A stretch of DNA of 25,719 nucleotides, taken from a virus. The notes beneath the pieces are model-generated. The model saw only the letters and a program-made list of their open reading frames with translations. It was not told where the DNA came from and made no database searches. Each line of letters begins with the position of its first letter. Positions within the stretch are counted from its first letter, which is position 1. The position numbers and the translations under genes were made by a program. The stretch lies in the IMG/VR virus record IMGVR_UViG_3300001533_002715, positions 1-25,719 of that record; one strand, given 5' to 3'. Below are positions 810 to 23,507 of this stretch, one piece after another.

Positions 810-1089
810 TTATTACTACCTCCTTCGAGATACTGGAGCTGTCAGAAGAATAATTTGATATTACCATTGAAGAATTTTCCCAGCTTACATTCCATGAATC
901 TGCATTCTCGAAAGTAAATTTCGTATCATCGCTAGTTGAATAGTATTTAATAGATTCCTCAAGAGTTAAGGTTTTCCGCATTAATTCTTCCATTTTTCTA
1001 GAAGTGTTCTCTGGATAAGCTACTTTAAATTTTTCCCAAACCTCTTTAGATATTGTGATACCAGGCTTGATCCTTCTATTATCTGACAT
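784..1089 (-). CDS. Ribbon-helix-helix-like small protein, putative regulator
   Basis: A 101-residue protein. Residues about 7-45 (IKPGITISKEVWEKFK then SRKMEELMRKTL) follow the short strand, helix, helix pattern of CopG/Arc-type ribbon-helix-helix DNA-binding proteins. The remainder is Ser/Asp-rich (SNYSSDSSS) and unrecognised. The family call is by pattern only. It heads a two-gene minus-strand unit that diverges from the virion block starting at 1232, a common place for a regulator. Its leader lacks a GGAGG and instead has a GA dinucleotide tract, which may serve as a purine-rich ribosome binding site. Confidence 0.6.
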   Translation of the reverse strand: MSDNRRIKPGITISKEVWEKFKVAYPENTSRKMEELMRKTLTLEESIKYYSTSDDTKFTFENADSWNVSWENSSMVISNYSSDSSSISKEVVINVNKWDKS

Positions 1090-1231
1090 ATCTATCTCTC
1101 TCTCTCTCTCTTGCTTATGGCCATGATGTATCCATATATATTAACTTATGCGTATACATATAAAGTTCTACGCTAATTGTCAAAAAGTCTAAAGATAATT
1201 AAAAGAATATTTTAAAATAAGGAAAAAATAT
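1090..1231. promoter_or_regulatory. Divergent intergenic region, probable promoters
   Basis: This 142-base AT-rich gap separates the minus-strand pair from the plus-strand virion block, so it should hold promoters for both. An imperfect palindrome centred on GTATAC (1147-1162) is a possible operator. AAGGA at 1222-1226 is the ribosome binding site for the gene at 1232. I cannot assign a confident -35/-10 pair or a T4-type late promoter. Confidence 0.35.
1095..1111 (-). repeat. GA dinucleotide microsatellite in a ribosome-binding position
   Basis: Seventeen bases of alternating TC on the plus strand give (GA)n on the mRNA of the minus-strand gene, 5 bases before its ATG (1089). No canonical Shine-Dalgarno is present, so the tract is the only purine-rich element available. 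Slippage in such a tract could change initiation strength. Confidence 0.7.
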
Positions 1232-1936
1232 ATGGCTTATGAAGGAATAAAAAATTTTGTTATGAGACGTCTTGGTTATCCAAGAGTTAAAGTGTATTTA
1301 ACTGAAGAGCAGATAGAAGATAATGTATGGGAAGCTATAAGTAGATATTTTGAGTATAGATCTCTCAAAACAAAATGGCATTATATGACTGCAATTTCTG
1401 GTAGCAGTGAGCATGAAATACCTCCTAATATAGTACCACAATACATAAGAGAAGTTATATTCAAGCCAAGTGATCCACTATTATCTCTAACTGGAGTAAT
1501 GCAAGATACTTATATTCTTTATTATTTGCAAAATGCTGGTGGAGCTTCTAACTTTATAGTGGATTATTGGATGACTCTAGCATCTTACGAAGAGTATGTA
1601 AGAGTATTGGGCAATCAACCACACTGGGAAATAATTAACGGAGATACTATAAAATTAGACCCTTCCCCAAGTATTGATTATTCGCTAGGGATTAAATATG
1701 ATGAAATTCCAGATGAGAATGTTATAGAAAATATAAGATGGATAAGATTGTACACTCTTGCTCTTTCTAAAATAGTGGAAGGAGAGATACGATCTAAGTT
1801 TAGCTCTTTTCAAGCTGGATCCGGTGAGATCTCTTTAAATGGAGATGCATTAAAGGCCGATGGTAAAGAAGAACTAGTTGACTTAAAACAAGAGAACTAT
1901 GAAAAAGGGGATCCTCTTGGAATGATAATGGGATAA
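1232..1936 (+). CDS. Neck protein, gp13-like (head completion)
   Basis: A 234-residue protein with the layout of T4 gp13-type neck proteins. An N-terminal part GIKNFVMRRLGYPRVKVY then LTEEQIEDNVWEAI gives the pattern of a helix, 'LG.P...V.LT..Q....' and an aromatic R-x-FEY segment. The C-terminal part has WIRLYTLALSKIVEGEIRSK followed by LNGDALKADGKEEL, a tail typical of this family. In T4 gp13 joins the filled head to the tail with gp14. The assignment rests on motif pattern and on the neighbours (gp14-like, gp15, gp18, gp19 follow in T4 order). AAGGA lies 5 bases before the start. It is the first gene of the plus-strand virion block. Confidence 0.55.
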   Translation: MAYEGIKNFVMRRLGYPRVKVYLTEEQIEDNVWEAISRYFEYRSLKTKWHYMTAISGSSEHEIPPNIVPQYIREVIFKPSDPLLSLTGVMQDTYILYYLQNAGGASNFIVDYWMTLASYEEYVRVLGNQPHWEIINGDTIKLDPSPSIDYSLGIKYDEIPDENVIENIRWIRLYTLALSKIVEGEIRSKFSSFQAGSGEISLNGDALKADGKEELVDLKQENYEKGDPLGMIMG

Positions 1937-1943
1937 TGAGTGT

Positions 1944-2216
1944 ATGGCTTATATGCAAAAACGAAATGAACTAGAAGCTGGAGAAGTTTATATAATAGAA
2001 TTCTTATCTTCACCAAGAAGAAAAGATCCAGGCCATTGGCATAATAGCTACTATGTGACAACAGAAAAGAAAAGTGACCACGTAGAGTTATATATGATAA
2101 ACAAAGGAGAAAAACCGCGGTTTTCAACCTCTGGTACTATAAAAAATAAATTATATAGTAAAGTAACTGATAAGCCTCGGGTAAAGCACAACGTTATTAA
2201 GTATATATTTGAATGA
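1944..2216 (+). CDS. Hypothetical protein in virion block
   Basis: A 90-residue, basic protein of unknown function, 7 bases after the gp13-like gene. No strong ribosome binding site is visible at the ATG at 1944; an in-frame ATG at 1953 is an alternative. It contains VYIIEFLSSPRRKDPGHWHN and ends KYIFE. No membrane segment or known motif is seen. A structured GC-rich spacer follows. Confidence 0.55.
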   Translation: MAYMQKRNELEAGEVYIIEFLSSPRRKDPGHWHNSYYVTTEKKSDHVELYMINKGEKPRFSTSGTIKNKLYSKVTDKPRVKHNVIKYIFE

Positions 2217-2260
2217 TGATATTATTAATGTTAGTTATAATTGTTAATTATGGGCGGTAA

Positions 2261-2313
2261 ATTTGCGGGCAGGGTACCCGCAAATGTCGGGTAACTACCC
2301 GCATTATGCGGGT
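2261..2313. promoter_or_regulatory. GC-rich cluster of alternative hairpins
   Basis: In an AT-rich spacer (2217-2338), stem ATTTGCGGG 2261-2269 pairs perfectly with 2277-2285 (9 bp, 7-base loop). Next, CGGGT 2288-2292 can pair with ACCCG 2297-2301, or ACCCGC 2297-2302 can pair with GCGGGT 2308-2313; these two share bases and exclude each other. No U-tract follows any stem, so a simple intrinsic terminator is unlikely. It may be an attenuator or protein-binding RNA before the gene at 2339, or a transposable palindrome relic: the ACCCGC core recurs in the IS right-end hairpin. Confidence 0.5.
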
Positions 2314-2338
2314 GTTAAGCTACTAAAGGTAAAAACTT

Positions 2339-3295
2339 ATGGAGAATATATTGATACTACTAAACGAGGTAAAAACAAAAAACTTAGACAAGCTTACTAA
2401 TAAAAGCTTTAGAGATTTAGCAGAAGATTTTCCAGTAGAATTAGTTAGAATATTTTACAAAGGAATTAAAGAAACCGGTGTAACAGTAGATAAGGAAAAA
2501 GAAAAGGATTCTATTAAATATATAGCTGCTAATGAGTTTTTTGATGAGCATAAAGAATGTAAATTAAAGTTTACCGGAGATATAAATCTTTCAATTGAGT
2601 TGAGGAGGGGAGAATTAAAAGTTAAAATAAATACGTGGTCCTCTGATTATTATCTTCCTGAAGTTACATTGAGATTTAGCAATAAAGAGTCTGTTAACAA
2701 TATAGTAAACAAAATTAAAGAGTATTTTAATGAAAATAAAGTAAGTGGTACTTATGATAAATCGGAAAGAGAGAAAGTAAAAAATAAATATAGTACTATA
2801 AGTAATTTTCCAAATGAAATAAAAAGTTTAAAGAAATTCGCTAATAAAAATTTATATAATTTATATATAGGGTACACAGATGAAGTGTTAAAAGATATCT
2901 ATTCAATAGTTTTAATATTCGATGTTAATGATATACTGCCACCTAAATTGGCAAGTCAAATAGAAACAAATAAGATTATTGACATAGAGCGTTTAAGATA
3001 TAGTTTTCAAATTGAGCTACTGCAAAAAATAGTTGATTTTGCTATAACAAAAATAGAAAGTATAAATCACAATATAATTAGAGTCATTCCTATGGGCTCG
3101 CGGTTAAAAATACTAATTAGTAAAAATACTGGTAGTAAAAAGTTCGATGGTGAGAAAATAGAATCACTTCATAAGCAAAATAAAGAAAAATTAAAAAATC
3201 TTGGTGATGTATATAAATATATTAAGAAACTAGAGCTACATGAATTTAAGCAAGAAATTATAAAAATTGCACTTGGAGAAAATAATGAAATTTAA
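2339..3295 (+). CDS. Hypothetical protein, 318 residues
   Basis: Not recognised. It is Lys/Glu/Asn-rich with no signal peptide, membrane helix or nucleotide-binding motif visible. A central part has strand-rich segments (LKFTGDINLSIELRRGELKV), and the C-terminal third looks helical (SLHKQNKEKLKNLGDVYKYI). AAAGGT precedes the ATG. It sits after the hairpin cluster and overlaps the next gene by 11 bases, so the two are translationally linked. Its place between gp13-like and gp14-like genes could indicate an inserted accessory gene or a virion component. Confidence 0.65.
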   Translation: MENILILLNEVKTKNLDKLTNKSFRDLAEDFPVELVRIFYKGIKETGVTVDKEKEKDSIKYIAANEFFDEHKECKLKFTGDINLSIELRRGELKVKINTWSSDYYLPEVTLRFSNKESVNNIVNKIKEYFNENKVSGTYDKSEREKVKNKYSTISNFPNEIKSLKKFANKNLYNLYIGYTDEVLKDIYSIVLIFDVNDILPPKLASQIETNKIIDIERLRYSFQIELLQKIVDFAITKIESINHNIIRVIPMGSRLKILISKNTGSKKFDGEKIESLHKQNKEKLKNLGDVYKYIKKLELHEFKQEIIKIALGENNEI

Positions 3296-3545
3296 TGAAG
3301 CTTTGCAAACAGCTATTGGTGATGAAATAGACGTTGGCCAAGATGCAACCAAAAAGAATAAATTTGAGAAATTGCTAAACTCCATAAAAAAGAATGATAC
3401 CTTAGCGATGACTCATATAGTTAATATATTTCCGAGAATTGAAATTGGTCAAACATTAGATAAATTAAGAAAGAGAAAAAAATATAAAAAATACCCTGGA
3501 TATGATGTTGCTATCTCCAAACTCGAGTGGAGACGGAGTCACTAA
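3285..3545 (+). CDS. Hypothetical protein, 86 residues
   Basis: Small basic protein (MKFNEALQTAIGDEIDV... ending SKLEWRRSH). I chose the ATG at 3285 over a TTG 18 bases upstream, because TTGGAGA at 3273-3279 is placed correctly for it. The start overlaps the previous stop by 11 bases. The region DKLRKRKKYKKYPGYDVAI is strongly basic and could contact nucleic acid. No family was recognised. Confidence 0.55.
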   Translation: MKFNEALQTAIGDEIDVGQDATKKNKFEKLLNSIKKNDTLAMTHIVNIFPRIEIGQTLDKLRKRKKYKKYPGYDVAISKLEWRRSH

Positions 3546-3616
3546 TATGATAAACAAAAATACAACAATATTTATGATGTTATCGTACTATCTAAAATAT
3601 GATATGAGGTTTTTAA

Positions 3617-16479: not shown

Positions 16480-17827
16480 TTATTTTATAGTTAGTAGTGA
16501 AAACAAAGATATTCTTGAGACTATATTAGAGACTCTTAGCTTCTGGGATTCGTCCAAAGCTTATTCTATGGGCAGGTTTGACAAAAACTTAATAAGAAAA
16601 GTAACATTTGCTAAATGGGTTGAAGATCTTGGTATGCCATCTATTAAAGTAACTATAGGCTTTTTGCAATTTGTAGAAAGCGTATTAGAAGATTATGATT
16701 ATAAAGTTATAGATGACAGGGAAGAGCTAAAAGAACCAACTGGCCAAGATTCCAGCTTAAAAGATATAGAACTTTATGATCACCAAAAAAGTGCCATAAA
16801 GAAAGCTATAAATAATCGAAGAGGACTTATAATTAGTCCTACAGGATCTGGCAAGACAGAAATTTTTCTTGCTATGATTAAGATGCTAGATGAGTCAACT
16901 TTAGTTGTTTTTAATAGAGCGCAACTTACTAGACAAACCATGGAAAGGGCTGTAGGCAGAGGAATAGATGCTGGTATAGTACAAGGAAATAACGTATTGG
17001 AAAAAACTGTAACTATGGCCACCATTCAAAGTATAGAGAAATTAGAAGATATAAGAAAATATAAGAACTTAATAATAGATGAGGTTCATAATGCTAGCTC
17101 TAAGAGTTTTCAAAACATATTGAAAGAAAAGCATTGGAACAGAGTTTATGGATTTTCAGCAACGGCTGTTAACCCAAGTAAGATGGATCTTAAAACTGCT
17201 AAAATTATATCTAATATAGGGCCAGTCATATTTAAAGCTGATTCTAAAAAGTTAATGGAAAATGGCATAATAGCTAAACCAACTATATATATGATAAAAA
17301 TAAATCGGCCAGATAATATAGAAGATTTAGGATATAGAACTGCTGAAAAAACAGGTATTATATATAACAAACATAGGAATAAGATAGTAAAGGGGTTATG
17401 TGATATCCACGAAAAAGATAAAATATTAATAATGACAAAATACGTTGACCAAGGAAAAGAAATTCAGAAACTCTTGCCGGGAGTTGAGTTTATTTGGAAT
17501 GAAACAAAGATTGAACGTAGAATGGAATTGATTGAAAAATTTGAACGCAGTGATATAACTACTTTAATAGCATCCCGTATTTTAGATGAAGGCATAGATA
17601 TAAAAGATTTTAATGTATTAATAATAGCTAGTGCTGGTGCCACATTTAGAAAGACAATACAAAGACTTGGTAGAGGACTTAGAATAACAGAAAACAAAAA
17701 AACTGTTACTGTCTATGATTTTCTTGATGATACCCACAAAAGTCTATATAAACACTCAAAGCAAAGAATGAAAGATTATAAAATTTTTGGCTACGACGAT
17801 ATTAGAACATTGGAGGATTTAGATTAA
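16451..17827 (+). CDS. uvsW: UvsW-like superfamily 2 DNA helicase
   Basis: A 458-residue SF2 helicase. LYDHQ (108-112) resembles the motif before Walker A. Motif I is SPTGSGKT (129-136), motif II DEVH (210-213), motif III SAT (236-238) and motif VI QRLGRGLR (404-411). T4 UvsW (503 residues) unwinds D-loops, R-loops and branched DNA and helps switch origin-dependent to recombination-dependent replication. The TTG at 16451 is taken as start because AAAGGAG at 16437-16443 is 7 bases before it; the first in-frame ATG (residue 40) would remove an N-terminal part that looks genuine (YFIVSSENKDILETILETL). Confidence 0.88.
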   Translation: MQIFLLIKNNYFIVSSENKDILETILETLSFWDSSKAYSMGRFDKNLIRKVTFAKWVEDLGMPSIKVTIGFLQFVESVLEDYDYKVIDDREELKEPTGQDSSLKDIELYDHQKSAIKKAINNRRGLIISPTGSGKTEIFLAMIKMLDESTLVVFNRAQLTRQTMERAVGRGIDAGIVQGNNVLEKTVTMATIQSIEKLEDIRKYKNLIIDEVHNASSKSFQNILKEKHWNRVYGFSATAVNPSKMDLKTAKIISNIGPVIFKADSKKLMENGIIAKPTIYMIKINRPDNIEDLGYRTAEKTGIIYNKHRNKIVKGLCDIHEKDKILIMTKYVDQGKEIQKLLPGVEFIWNETKIERRMELIEKFERSDITTLIASRILDEGIDIKDFNVLIIASAGATFRKTIQRLGRGLRITENKKTVTVYDFLDDTHKSLYKHSKQRMKDYKIFGYDDIRTLEDLD

Positions 17828-18102
17828 TGCCAACATATATATATTACGACCCTGAGACTAATGATGAAATTGAAAAGGTTCATGAAATGAAAGAAAGTCC
17901 AGTTGTTATTAATCCAAAAACAGGCAACAAGATGAAAATAAAAATTACTGGTGGTATGCACATTATATTTAAGGGTTCTGGTTGGACTGGTGCTTCTACC
18001 ATTAAAAGAGACGACAATTATCACATAGATAGGAATAAGGATGAAATAAGAAGTGGCCTAAAAGAGGATCCTTATTCTAAATGGAGAGAGGAGCCCTTAT
18101 AA
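17827..18102 (+). CDS. FmdB-like protein lacking the zinc-ribbon cysteines
   Basis: A 91-residue protein. MPTYIYYDPETNDEIEKVHEM and ITGGMHIIFKGSGWTG match the start and end of the FmdB family of small zinc-ribbon regulators (usual pattern MPTYEY-C-x2-C ... CP-x-CG ... GG-x-IFKGSGFY). All four cysteine positions are replaced: the first pair falls in YYDPET and the second in NPKTGNK. The fold may persist without zinc. FmdB proteins are poorly understood putative regulators. The ATG overlaps the uvsW stop (TAATG), and the next gene begins directly after the stop. Confidence 0.65.
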   Translation: MPTYIYYDPETNDEIEKVHEMKESPVVINPKTGNKMKIKITGGMHIIFKGSGWTGASTIKRDDNYHIDRNKDEIRSGLKEDPYSKWREEPL

Positions 18103-18339
18103 ATGGAAAATAAAAATGAACTTAATGAAGTTGTAGTTAATAAAACTGTGAAGTATTATATAACAAACTATAATTTTGAAAAAGTATTAAAAATCTTAGA
18201 AGAGGACTCTGAAGAGATAGAAGTAATTAGATCAACTACTAGGCTAACCGAGGATGAGATAGTTATTGATCCTCAAGAAACTAGTGGTTTGAACACAGCT
18301 ATATCTGATGATTACGAATATGAATTGGAAAATGAATAA
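18103..18339 (+). CDS. Small acidic hypothetical protein, 78 residues
   Basis: The ATG directly follows the previous stop. Strongly acidic (ILEEDSEEIEVI, DDYEYELENE) with a short beta-like start (TVKYYITNYNFEKV). No motif recognised. It is expressed with its neighbours by tight spacing. Confidence 0.5.
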   Translation: MENKNELNEVVVNKTVKYYITNYNFEKVLKILEEDSEEIEVIRSTTRLTEDEIVIDPQETSGLNTAISDDYEYELENE

Positions 18340-18355
18340 AACAAGGGATATAGAG

Positions 18356-18493
18356 ATGAGAAAAATAAATAAACCCAAGGATTTAACAGAAAATAAATAT
18401 TATGAAATTGAAGAGCAATATTATAAAGAAGATATAAGAAATAGTCAAAAAAAACAACATGAGAAAAATATAAGAAAAATCAATAAGAGGTAG
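18356..18493 (+). CDS. Very small basic protein, 45 residues
   Basis: MRKINKPKDLTENKYYEIEE... ending KNIRKINKR. The ATG at 18356 is chosen because AAGGGA lies about 8 bases upstream; an upstream in-frame ATG at 18332 has only a weak GGA. Mostly one charged helix. It immediately precedes the tubulin-like gene (5 bases). No function was recognised. Confidence 0.45.
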   Translation: MRKINKPKDLTENKYYEIEEQYYKEDIRNSQKKQHEKNIRKINKR

Positions 18494-18498
18494 AATCA

Positions 18499-19569
18499 AT
18501 GAATGAAAAAAGAATAATATTAGGTGTCGGTCAATGTGGAATGAAATTAGCTAATAAATTTTTTCATACCTATAAAGGCTCTGAAGGTTTAATAAATTTA
18601 AGCACAAGTATTGAAGACTCAGTTGGAATTCCAACTACTGGCTTAGTACAAGTTAGCAAATCAGGTAGTGGTAAAAAGTTTAGTAGAGGGCTATCCATAT
18701 GGAAAGAAAATAATGACGAGCTTGAAAAACAATTACGTAAAGTAAAAAATTCAGATGTTATATATTTTTCTTCAGCTGGCGGTGGCAGTGGAAGTAGCTC
18801 TATTAAGTATGTTTCTGACGTCTTATTAAAAAATAATAACAGAGTATTCTTAGTATTAGTTCTGCCATTCGACCATGAAAATTTGCCTTACAAACCTAAT
18901 GCTCTTCAGTCCTTGAGTAAATTACAAGATGAGGGTTACACTAGCAAAATTAGCGTGTTGATTTTCGACAATGACAAACTTGGTAAACAATATTATGACA
19001 CTGAATATTCTGAAGATGGGAAAGAAATTAAAAGGCCAAACTTAGAATCTATTAATAATCATATAATTAGCATCACTGATATAGTAATTGACATGGTTGA
19101 GAAGTATCATATTAAAGACAAGTACTCTCCATTTTCGATTGATGCTTTAGAGCATGAGTCTGTTATATTCTCTAATGGAATTTTAGGAGTAGATTTTAAA
19201 AAATATGATAATGGACCCACTAATGTAAAATTTGACTATGGCAAACTAAAAGATTGCAAGAATGTTATAATTGCTAGAGCAGTAAATTTACATACTAGCG
19301 ATTATCATATTGATCAAAGCACTACTATGTTTATAGACATAGTTAAGAAAATTTCTAGAAAATCAAAAAATGCAAGGATCATTTCTGGTATCATTAGAAC
19401 AAATCAAATAGATGATGGCACTTATATTATTATAGGAAATAATTTAGATATTAGTAAATACATAGAAAGAACAAAAAATAAAATAGGAACATCCATAGAG
19501 GGATATAAGCATACCGACGAAAAAGTGAAAGTATTGGATGAAAAAGAACACGAAACCTACGATATCTAA
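18499..19569 (+). CDS. Tubulin/FtsZ-superfamily GTPase
   Basis: A 356-residue protein with the tubulin-fold GTPase pattern. First loop ILGVGQCGMKLA (7-18) resembles the tubulin/FtsZ 'G.GQ.G' start, and INLSTSIED (32-40) the strand after it. The nucleotide-binding signature AGGGSGSSS (93-101) corresponds to GGGTGSG. VLVLPFDHENL then NALQSLSKL (134-142) matches the region that contacts the base in FtsZ, and VLIFDNDKL follows. SIDALEHE has the D-x-x-E spacing of a synergy (T7-like) loop, the form seen in tubulins and TubZ rather than the FtsZ D-x-x-D. Phage relatives (PhuZ, phage TubZ) make filaments that centre or segregate DNA. Whether this one polymerises is unknown. GAGGT lies before the ATG. 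Confidence 0.8.
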   Translation: MNEKRIILGVGQCGMKLANKFFHTYKGSEGLINLSTSIEDSVGIPTTGLVQVSKSGSGKKFSRGLSIWKENNDELEKQLRKVKNSDVIYFSSAGGGSGSSSIKYVSDVLLKNNNRVFLVLVLPFDHENLPYKPNALQSLSKLQDEGYTSKISVLIFDNDKLGKQYYDTEYSEDGKEIKRPNLESINNHIISITDIVIDMVEKYHIKDKYSPFSIDALEHESVIFSNGILGVDFKKYDNGPTNVKFDYGKLKDCKNVIIARAVNLHTSDYHIDQSTTMFIDIVKKISRKSKNARIISGIIRTNQIDDGTYIIIGNNLDISKYIERTKNKIGTSIEGYKHTDEKVKVLDEKEHETYDI

Positions 19570-21742: not shown

Positions 21743-22462
21743 TTGAGCGATAGTTTTAATTTAGGTAACATGGAATATCTCATACTCAACTACTCTTTAA
21801 AGGATAGATCATTCTGGCTAAAGGTTTTTGAAAATATAAAGCCAAAGTATTTTGAAAAAGATGAAAATAAACAAGTGTTTAAATTTTTCAGAGAGTTTTT
21901 TAACGAGTACAATGAATTACCAGATATCGATATAGCAAAAAACGAGTTGGGAGATTCACTAGATAAAACACTGCTAGATGGAATATATAATAAAGCAGAG
22001 CTTGAGAACGAGGAAAATAAAAAAGAATATATTTATAATAATACTCTTCGTTTTATAAAAGAAAGTATGATGTCAGATTCCCTAAGAAAATCCATAGAAT
22101 TAATGGAAGAGGGTAAATTTGACGAAATTGGCGAAGAGATTAAAAAGGTATTAACATTCAATCTTGACACTTCTTTGGGTATTTCCCTTGATCAAATTGA
22201 TGAAAGATATGAAAGAATAAATAAATTACAAACTGATAAAGTGCCTACTGGATTCCCACAGGTAGATGCTATTTTACACGGCGGATGGGCACGTAAAGAA
22301 CTATATAGTGTTGCCGCTCCTCCAGGTGTCGGCAAATGTCAAACTTATGATACCGAAATTGAAATTGAAATAGATGAAAATTGTGAAGAATATGAAATTT
22401 TGAAAAATCTTTTATATGATATATCCCACATAAGGACTAAAAATGGGAAACATAAGAGCTAA
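21743..22462 (+). CDS. 41: gp41-like replicative helicase, N-terminal part fused to intein N-fragment
   Basis: A 239-residue product. Residues 1-198 are the helicase N-extein: a helical N-terminal domain, the linker and FPQVDAILHGGWARKELYSV leading to Walker A APPGVGK (192-198). The motif is then interrupted: residue 199 is Cys and starts an intein block A (CQTYDTEIEIEID). The reading frame ends 40 residues later (TKNGKHKS, stop). The rest of the intein and the helicase are in the next gene, in another frame, overlapping by 20 bases. TTG start supported by AGGAG 6 bases upstream. Alone this part lacks the rest of the ATPase domain, so activity would need trans-splicing. Confidence 0.85.
   Translation: MSDSFNLGNMEYLILNYSLKDRSFWLKVFENIKPKYFEKDENKQVFKFFREFFNEYNELPDIDIAKNELGDSLDKTLLDGIYNKAELENEENKKEYIYNNTLRFIKESMMSDSLRKSIELMEEGKFDEIGEEIKKVLTFNLDTSLGISLDQIDERYERINKLQTDKVPTGFPQVDAILHGGWARKELYSVAAPPGVGKCQTYDTEIEIEIDENCEEYEILKNLLYDISHIRTKNGKHKS
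22337..22459 (+). other. Intein N-fragment (Int-N), 41 residues
   Basis: Begins at Cys199 of the upstream product, right after GVGK of Walker A. Block A pattern C-x2-YDTEIEIEI. It ends before the usual 'I.IGDL' segment, which is in the second gene, so the break lies between blocks A and B. That is unlike classical split inteins, which break at the endonuclease position. Confidence 0.82.
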
Positions 22463-22826
22463 AATAAAAATTGGTGATTTAGTAGAAGCTTTAGGTGCAA
22501 AAGCAGAAAAGCAAGAGGTAAACATAAATAACTATAATATAAAAGTTAACACTCCATATGGGTTTAAAAAGATTGATGGAGCAATGAAAACTGAAGAGTT
22601 GTCCATTGTTAATGTTAAAACAAATAGCTATTCTCTTAATTGTGCAACAAGACATAGAATAGAAACTAAAAATGGCTTTGACTTTGCTACAAATGCCAAA
22701 GAGGTTAAAACTAAAAATGGTTTTGAAGACTGTAAGATAACAGATTTGAATAAAAAAGAAAATTGTTATGACATACAGGTATCAGATGTACATAGTTATT
22801 GGTCTAATAATATGCACAGCCATAAT
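22443..22826 (+). other. Intein C-fragment (Int-C), 128 residues, no endonuclease
   Basis: Contains KIKIGDLVEALGAK, the block B-like segment LNCATRHRIET (H71), block F CYDIQVSDVHSYW and block G MHSHN ending in Asn128, followed by Ser as +1 residue. Penultimate His127 and Asn128 are the usual pair for Asn cyclisation. No LAGLIDADG or HNH domain lies between B and F, so this is a mini-intein. Confidence 0.83.
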
Positions 22827-23507
22827 TCTATCTTCCTTGCCAATTGGGCAGTTAATGCCATGAAGCAGGGTTATAACGTTTTAGTATATACTCTAGAAAT
22901 AGCTGAAGAAAGATTGTCAATGAGGCATGACGCTATTTTAACAAAAATACCAGTTGATGAGCTAGCTATAGACATTGATAAATTGAAAAAGAAATACCAA
23001 ATGTTTGCCAAGACATCTAAAGCTAATTTATGGATTAAAGAGTTTGCAACAAAGACCGCCTCCGTAAATCAATTAAAGGCTCATCATGAGCAACTTATGG
23101 TATATGAGAATTTCAAGCCAGATTTAATAATAGTTGACTATGCAGGTTTGATGAAGCCAACTTATAAAACTGGTGAGGGTTATGAAGACTTAAAGACTAT
23201 ATATGAGGATTTAAGAGGATGGGCTGGAGAGGCAGATCTGCCAATATTGACAGCTGCACAAACAAACAGAAAATCTCTTGGCGATAAGGGTGGAACAAAA
23301 GAGTTGATTACCCAAGCTCAGGTATCAGAGTCATTGGGTATTACACAAACACTAGATGTTTTTATGACTATAACACAGTCCCTTGAAGAAAAAGAAGACC
23401 AAATTATAAGTTTATATTTTGACAAACATAGAAATGGAGAATCTTCTAAGATGATGAAATTTAATATTAATTATAAAAACTTTTTGCTAGAGGAATTAGA
23501 TATTTAG
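22443..23507 (+). CDS. 41: Intein C-fragment fused to the C-terminal part of the gp41-like helicase
   Basis: A 354-residue product. Residues 1-128 are the intein C-fragment and 129-354 the helicase C-extein. The C-extein starts with Ser129, completing Walker A as GVGK-S, then IFLANWAVNAMKQGYNVL, TLEIAEERLSMRHDA, Walker B DLIIVDYAGLM, TAAQTNRKSL and the C-terminal FDKHRNGESSKM typical of DnaB/gp41. The spliced protein would have 424 residues (T4 gp41: 475). The ATG at 22443 has AAGGA at 22432-22436, 6 bases upstream. In its frame a stop at 22431 blocks upstream extension. The helicase unwinds the fork and pairs with the primase. Confidence 0.85.
   Translation: MGNIRAKIKIGDLVEALGAKAEKQEVNINNYNIKVNTPYGFKKIDGAMKTEELSIVNVKTNSYSLNCATRHRIETKNGFDFATNAKEVKTKNGFEDCKITDLNKKENCYDIQVSDVHSYWSNNMHSHNSIFLANWAVNAMKQGYNVLVYTLEIAEERLSMRHDAILTKIPVDELAIDIDKLKKKYQMFAKTSKANLWIKEFATKTASVNQLKAHHEQLMVYENFKPDLIIVDYAGLMKPTYKTGEGYEDLKTIYEDLRGWAGEADLPILTAAQTNRKSLGDKGGTKELITQAQVSESLGITQTLDVFMTITQSLEEKEDQIISLYFDKHRNGESSKMMKFNINYKNFLLEELDI

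What the first reader, a model, noticed from the sequence alone, without database searches (positions are those of the whole stretch)
22337..22826. Fractured gp41-like helicase with an atypically split mini-intein in Walker A
Seen: helicase residues end at GVGK, an intein block A starts with Cys, and the frame stops 41 residues later. A second frame, overlapping by 20 bases, starts at an ATG with AAGGA 6 bases upstream. It carries blocks B, F and G (MHSHN) and resumes the helicase at Ser, restoring GVGKS. Known: split inteins in fractured gp41 helicase genes (gp41-1, gp41-8) were found in environmental sequences, and a few inteins (AceL-TerL) are split near the N-terminus. Inference: here the break falls even before the IGDL segment, between blocks A and B, with no spacer between halves. 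The P-loop itself is rebuilt by splicing, so helicase activity would depend on trans-splicing.
Basis: partly seen in the sequence, partly recalled or inferred. Interest (0 to 1): 0.9.

Follow-up and report, generated by a model that had tools for sequence, protein, structure and literature searches.

The report
Naturally split intein in phage helicase
An uncultured T4-like phage makes its replicative helicase as two overlapping gene products that very probably have to be spliced together by a naturally split intein, and its closest relatives carry the same intein unsplit, split around an extra nuclease-like gene, or not at all, which makes the origin of split inteins traceable.

Summary
ORF 21743-22462 ends a gp41/DnaB-like helicase at PPGVGK and continues into a 41-residue Int-N. 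ORF 22443-23507, overlapping by 20 nt in the +1 frame, carries a 128-residue Int-C ending in HSHN and resumes the helicase at Ser. Intein-free relatives (L019, L020, L040) read GIGK/GFGK|SIFLAN through that exact point, so the insertion site is certain. Two relatives (L009, L011) carry the same intein in one open frame. A third (L010) is split at the same linker, with a separate nuclease-like gene between the halves. Intein and phage-core trees agree: the window pairs with contiguous L009, and split L010 falls with contiguous L011. The best solved match is VidaL, an atypically split intein (Z 18.4). The break is therefore at the known 'S1' position, not an unprecedented one. Int-N exceeds the published 15-37 residues because it carries an extra predicted helix and strand; the break lies at a beta-hairpin tip. 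Trans-splicing is inferred, not shown. The main rival is a one-base assembly error. It is made unlikely by no other broken frame in 16.8 kb of conserved sequence, by a Shine-Dalgarno plus ATG at the break, and by L010, but raw reads were unavailable.

The parts
21743..22336 (+). N-terminal 198 residues of the gp41/DnaB-like helicase (N-extein), ending in Walker A PPGVGK
   Evidence: phrog_19 DnaB-like replicative helicase E 1.1e-31, protein 9-198; TTG start with AGGAG upstream
22337..22459 (+). Int-N, 41 residues: block A with Cys1, beta strand TEIEIEI, inserted helix, strand, then tail; stop TAA 22460-22462
   Evidence: direct reading; orthologous in L009 and L011; AlphaFold model of read-through
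22432..22436 (+). Shine-Dalgarno AAGGA, 6 nt before the Int-C ATG
   Evidence: anti-SD duplex -5.9 kcal/mol; only 8.9% of non-start ATGs in the window are as good; homologous ATG in contiguous L011 -0.9; TTG of Int-C in split L010 -5.9
22443..22462 (+). 20-nt overlap of the two halves in different frames; at the tip of a predicted beta hairpin
   Evidence: overlaps between listed ORFs of 11-59 nt in +1 frame are common in this genome
22443..22826 (+). Int-C, 128 residues: helix IKIGDLVEAL, block B His (CATRH), block F (CYDIQVSDVHSY), block G MHSHN
   Evidence: VidaL E 4.8e-6; 60-71% identical to L009, L010, L011 at the same site
22827..23504 (+). C-terminal 226 residues of helicase (C-extein) starting SIFLANW; Ser+1 completes GVGKS
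   Evidence: Pfam DnaB_C E 8.5e-18; phrog_19 E 4.6e-46

Best explanation
This is a genuine, naturally split class 1 intein (Cys1, Ser+1) in the replicative helicase of an uncultured T4-like phage, split at the S1 region (between the second beta strand and the first conserved helix). SHOWN by sequence: the two reading frames, the motif residues, the exact insertion site (empty in relatives), orthologous inteins in one frame or split by a nuclease-like gene in close relatives, and selection against amino-acid change over long divergence. PREDICTED: a Hint (intein) fold, with the break at the tip of a beta hairpin, so that the Int-N strand would pair with the first strand of Int-C. INFERRED: the two proteins are made from one transcript (Int-C started at its own SD/ATG, probably coupled to translation of the first half), associate, and trans-splice by the standard class 1 route (Cys1 thioester, transfer to Ser+1, Asn cyclisation) into a 424-residue helicase. 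Because Walker A is divided between K and S, neither half can be an active ATPase, so helicase activity would require splicing. Evolutionarily the intein sits in a phage group where its helix-hairpin linker is found broken in two different forms.
For: Both frames, motifs and coordinates. VidaL, an atypically split intein, is the best PDB hit by sequence, Foldseek (E 2.6e-8) and VIA-align (Z 18.4, rmsd 2.1, 134 aligned). AlphaFold pLDDT 91.3 for the read-through window intein, lowest exactly at the break; the unaltered contiguous L011 intein gives the same hairpin, with Met35 (homologous to the window's Int-C Met) in its turn. Empty sites GIGK|SIF in L019, L020/L021 and GFGK|SIF in L040. Contiguous orthologues L009 and L011. 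L010 is split at the same linker, with a 324-aa ORF between and Int-C starting LRIRAKIKIGDL against MGNIRAKIKIGDL. pN far below pS in Int-C and lower in Int-N, with synonymous sites near saturation in Int-C. SD and start at the break. In 16,765 bp of conserved sequence the helicase is the only gene found in two frames. A sequenced isolate, Vibrio phage vB_VmeM-32, has a similarly split gp41 (27-aa Int-N, ORF between) three residues upstream.
Against: No splicing data and no reads. The window's linker aligns with the contiguous L011 linker (score 39.5 against null 14.5) with a net +4 nt, so a single spurious base would be enough to create the break. The closest relative, L009, is contiguous. 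The flexible pattern across the break found no second contig, though near-identical records may be left out. Pfam Intein_splicing is only 13.5 bits for Int-C, below its cut-off, although the contiguous relatives also score below it. An SD of this strength occurs at 9% of non-start ATGs.
Confidence: 0.8

Rival explanations
1. Assembly or sequencing indel: in reality the intein is contiguous, as in L009 and L011, and splices in cis; the two frames are an artefact of one base.
For: The window linker is homologous to the contiguous L011 linker, with an in-frame Met at the same place; the nearest relative, L009, is contiguous; there is a 5-A run next to a 3-G run in the overlap region.
Against: No other frame break in 16.8 kb of conserved sequence, so a random error is unlikely to fall in the roughly 30 bp where it leaves both halves intact; SD AAGGA at the right spacing, absent at the homologous ATG of L011 (-5.9 against -0.9 kcal/mol); L010 is truly split at the same linker.
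Confidence: 0.09
2. One protein is made by programmed +1 ribosomal frameshifting in the overlap, and the intein then splices in cis.
For: The second frame is +1 relative to the first, and an SD-like AAGGA lies upstream of the possible shift region.
Against: No prfB-like CUU-UGA or other standard +1 shift site precedes the stop (N-frame codons ATA AGG ACT AAA AAT GGG AAA CAT AAG AGC TAA, by inspection); the SD has start-codon spacing to an ATG; relatives are either fully contiguous or fully split by a gene, never frameshifted.
Confidence: 0.04
3. A recently broken, non-splicing relic: the phage is defective or relies on another helicase.
For: A recent frameshift would not yet show in dN/dS.
Against: All catalytic residues, both exteins and a translation start are intact; pN well below pS in both halves; no second helicase of this family was seen among the window proteins scanned, though the record is only a 25.7-kb fragment.
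Confidence: 0.07

Closest known systems
VidaL intein (PDB 6vgv/6vgw), naturally and atypically split at S1
   Same: Best sequence and structure match; break before the first conserved helix; Ser after the last intein residue; same CAxxH variant of block B. From memory, not checked here: VidaL was found in a T4-like helicase.
   Different: VidaL Int-N is 16 aa (PMC13014065); here it is 41 aa with an inserted helix and strand, and the break is at a hairpin tip. About 24% identity.
AceL-TerL and GOS-TerL atypically split inteins
   Same: Short Int-N, long Int-C, phage-type host gene.
   Different: They are split at S2, after the first helix (PMC13014065); other host gene. The window's helix IKIGDLVEAL is in Int-C.
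gp41-1 / gp41-8 fractured helicase inteins (Dassa et al. 2009, known by citation only)
   Same: gp41-type helicase as host; fractured gene.
   Different: Canonical split (Int-N about 90-120 aa, Int-C about 40 aa). From memory their insertion sites are outside the P loop; the window's is K|S of Walker A.
Vibrio phage vB_VmeM-32 gp41 (KU160494)
   Same: gp41 split near Walker A by an intein with 27-aa Int-N; break before the same helix.
   Different: Insertion point GVN|TGKS, a nuclease-like ORF between the halves; the helicase halves are not annotated.

Membership tests
Naturally split, atypically split (short Int-N) class 1 intein | Hint/horseshoe intein fold | tested here: met
   AlphaFold of the window read-through pLDDT 91.3; VIA Z 18.4 to VidaL; unaltered L011 orthologue has the same fold elements. 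Predicted, not solved.
Naturally split, atypically split (short Int-N) class 1 intein | Cys/Ser/Thr at 1, penultimate His, terminal Asn, nucleophile at +1 | tested here: met
   Cys1, His127-Asn128 of Int-C, Ser+1; invariant in all four orthologues
Naturally split, atypically split (short Int-N) class 1 intein | Block B TxxH | tested here: inconclusive
   His conserved, Thr at -3 replaced by Ala (CATRH), as in VidaL CAFNH
Naturally split, atypically split (short Int-N) class 1 intein | Two separate genes, each with its own start, that together give the whole host protein | tested here: met
   Two ORFs with SD; concatenated exteins align without interruption to intein-free helicases (63.7% over 427 columns with L020). 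Base accuracy rests on the assembly.
Naturally split, atypically split (short Int-N) class 1 intein | Split site near the N terminus (S1 or S2) | tested here: met
   Break after residue 41, before the first conserved helix; slightly longer than the published 15-37 aa (PMC13014065)
Naturally split, atypically split (short Int-N) class 1 intein | Trans-splicing activity | not testable with these tools
   needs co-expression
gp41-1/gp41-8 canonical split inteins | Split at the endonuclease (S0) site, short Int-C of about 35-50 aa | tested here: not met
   Int-C is 128 aa
gp41 / DnaB-like replicative helicase (host protein) | DnaB_C / phrog_19 profile and Walker A GxGKS after splicing | tested here: met
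   phrog_19 E 1e-31 and 5e-46 for the two halves; GVGK + S

The most novel reading that the evidence does not exclude
The same hairpin linker of one vertically inherited intein has been broken twice independently in one phage group (window: overlapping frames, no insert; L010: nuclease-like gene between halves), while sister phages keep it whole. If so, S1-type split inteins arise repeatedly because the hairpin tip tolerates a break and offers an internal Met that becomes a start codon, with a nuclease gene as an optional companion and not a prerequisite. The alternative, one ancestral split followed by two re-fusions, is equally parsimonious and would be just as new.
Probability: 0.4. Interest if true: 0.72.

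Novelty: new variant of a known kind. Interest (0 to 1): 0.6.

Why it matters
Few atypically split inteins are known (one 2025 study had five to analyse, PMC11923092), and it is assumed rather than shown that split inteins come from contiguous ones (PMC12707363). Here the empty, contiguous, split-with-ORF and split-without-ORF states of one orthologous intein occur in a single syntenic phage group, so the order of events and the effect of the split on splicing can be tested with natural pairs. The halves are also a new candidate pair for protein ligation, with an Int-N that brings its own helix and strand. It further implies a phage replicative helicase that cannot bind ATP properly until spliced.

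Tried and rejected
Close-relative searches with the helicase halves alone found almost nothing; relatives came through UvsX. Idea that the window's linker is a scar of an L010-like nuclease gene: its similarity to the 3' end of that ORF is weak (18 of 2000 shuffles as good) and much weaker than to the contiguous L011 linker (0 of 2000), so I did not adopt it. Outgroup-rooted trees were uninformative because the outgroups are too distant; four-taxon tests were used instead. Genome collection: only a remote helicase, no such intein. DNA similarity to sequenced phages: none for the 11-15.5 kb segment. Papers on GOS-TerL and Dassa 2009 are not in the library, and no held paper names the VidaL host gene.

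Full report
OBSERVATION. The finding reads correctly. ORF 21743-22462 (239 aa) carries 198 residues of a DnaB/gp41-like helicase ending SVAAPPGVGK, then CQTYDTEIEIEIDENCEEYEILKNLLYDISHIRTKNGKHKS and a stop. ORF 22443-23507 (354 aa) overlaps it by 20 nt in the +1 frame and carries 128 residues ending NNMHSHN, then SIFLANW... of the helicase. Both helicase parts match the same profile, phrog_19, at adjoining positions (162-366 and 367-581), so nothing of the host protein is missing.

WHAT THE INSERT IS. Int-C alone finds one convincing relative among solved structures: VidaL, E 4.8e-6. A read-through of the window intein (one four-letter word read as one residue, for folding only) gives an AlphaFold model of pLDDT 91.3 whose weakest block (65) is at the break. 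Foldseek ranks VidaL first (E 2.6e-8), and so does VIA-align (Z 18.4, rmsd 2.1 A, 134 residues; gp41-1 and NrdJ-1 inteins at Z 15.7-16.7). The unaltered contiguous orthologue L011 gives the same elements at pLDDT 94.4: strand 7-13, helix 17-25, hairpin 27-32/37-43, helix 44-50. Its Met35, which aligns with the window's Int-C start Met, lies in the hairpin turn. So the window's gene break falls at the tip of a hairpin that a contiguous relative possesses.

RELATIVES. The window is a 25.7-kb IMG/VR virus record. UvsX led to syntenic relatives with 64-71% identical UvsX. Four states of the helicase occur among them. (a) No intein: L019, L020/L021 and L040 read GIGK|SIFLAN or GFGK|SIFLAN uninterrupted; this fixes the insertion point to the residue. 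(b) Contiguous intein in one ORF: L009 (576 aa) and L011 (583 aa). (c) Split with an intervening gene: in L010 Int-N stops after 28 residues, a 324-aa ORF follows, and Int-C starts at a TTG 1-2 residues from the window's start. That ORF has weak nuclease signals only: a PHROG HNH-endonuclease family E 1.6e-7, NUMOD3 and phage endonuclease I at about 0.002, below Pfam's cut-offs; calling it a homing endonuclease is inference. (d) Split with overlapping frames and no insert: the window. More distant phages L022-L024 have a contiguous mini-intein at the same GIGK|S point.

HISTORY. Four-taxon likelihood tests give ((window, L009), (L010, L011)) for the intein (149 columns, alternatives rejected, AU below 1e-4) and for eight concatenated core proteins (3623 columns, alternatives rejected); the exteins agree without reaching significance. 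The intein has thus mostly been inherited with the phage in these four, and the two split forms are not sisters. Either two independent breaks or one break and two re-fusions is needed; the data do not choose. L020, without intein, nests among carriers in the core tree, so precise loss or repeated gain also happens.

IS THE BREAK REAL? For: (1) relatives' proteins hit 16,765 bp of window + strand sequence, and only the helicase is found in two frames. (2) AAGGA lies 6 nt before the ATG; the predicted anti-SD duplex is -5.9 kcal/mol, weaker than most of the listed gene starts (about three quarters are as strong or stronger) but matched by only 8.9% of other ATGs, and absent at the homologous ATG of L011 (-0.9). 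(3) L010 is unmistakably split at the same linker. (4) ORF overlaps of 11-59 nt in the +1 frame are frequent in this genome. (5) Int-N and Int-C show pN well below pS. Against: the linker is homologous to L011's with a net +4 nt, so one erroneous base could mimic the split, and I could not see reads. I put the error at about 9%.

MECHANISM. Shown: frames, motifs, site, orthologues. Predicted: fold, and Int-N strand pairing with the first Int-C strand. Inferred: separate translation, association and class 1 trans-splicing to the 424-residue helicase. Since Walker A GVGK|S is divided, helicase ATPase activity would depend on splicing.

KNOWN AND NEW. Published atypical splits give Int-N of 15-37 aa, either just after strand beta2 (S1: VidaL 16 aa, PolB16 OarG 15 aa) or after the first helix (S2: AceL-TerL, GOS-TerL) (PMC13014065, PMC10189870). 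What differs is the 41-residue Int-N with an inserted helix and strand, the break at a hairpin tip, the overlapping genes without a spacer, and the natural series of states in close relatives. [quoted passage not shown]); this set makes that testable. I therefore call it a new variant of a known kind.

Noticed in passing
L003 (KU160494.1, Vibrio phage vB_VmeM-32) 535-3610: The gp41 helicase of this isolate is a fractured gene whose halves are not annotated: N half plus 27-aa Int-N (535-1233), a 378-aa ORF (1336-2472), then Int-C plus C half (2444-3610), inserted at GVN|TGKS. Its uvsX is also noted as HintC in the record.
   Followed up: partly
L022 13378-15957 (also L023, L024): One phage helicase carries two inteins: a contiguous mini-intein at GIGK|S and a second, canonically split one at ANR|S with a 65-aa ORF between the halves.
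   Followed up: partly
L018 2492-5917: gp46-like recombination nuclease gene broken by a canonically split intein (GEGK|S) with a 351-aa ORF between the halves; its Int-C end is 67% identical to the window's over 30 residues.
   Followed up: no
L005 (MT366762.1) 1085-3505: Vibrio phage GR28A gp41 has a contiguous large intein at GINVGK|T, the equivalent Walker A position; the record's annotation does not mention it.
   Followed up: no
L020 helicase 17307-18572: Intein-free helicase in a phage that nests among intein carriers in the core-protein tree, suggesting precise loss or repeated gain.
   Followed up: partly
window 18499-19569: A weakly tubulin/FtsZ-like gene (phrog_4733 PhuZ, E 0.00046) conserved in L009, L010 and L012, not found by tblastn in the L011 stretch.
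   Followed up: no
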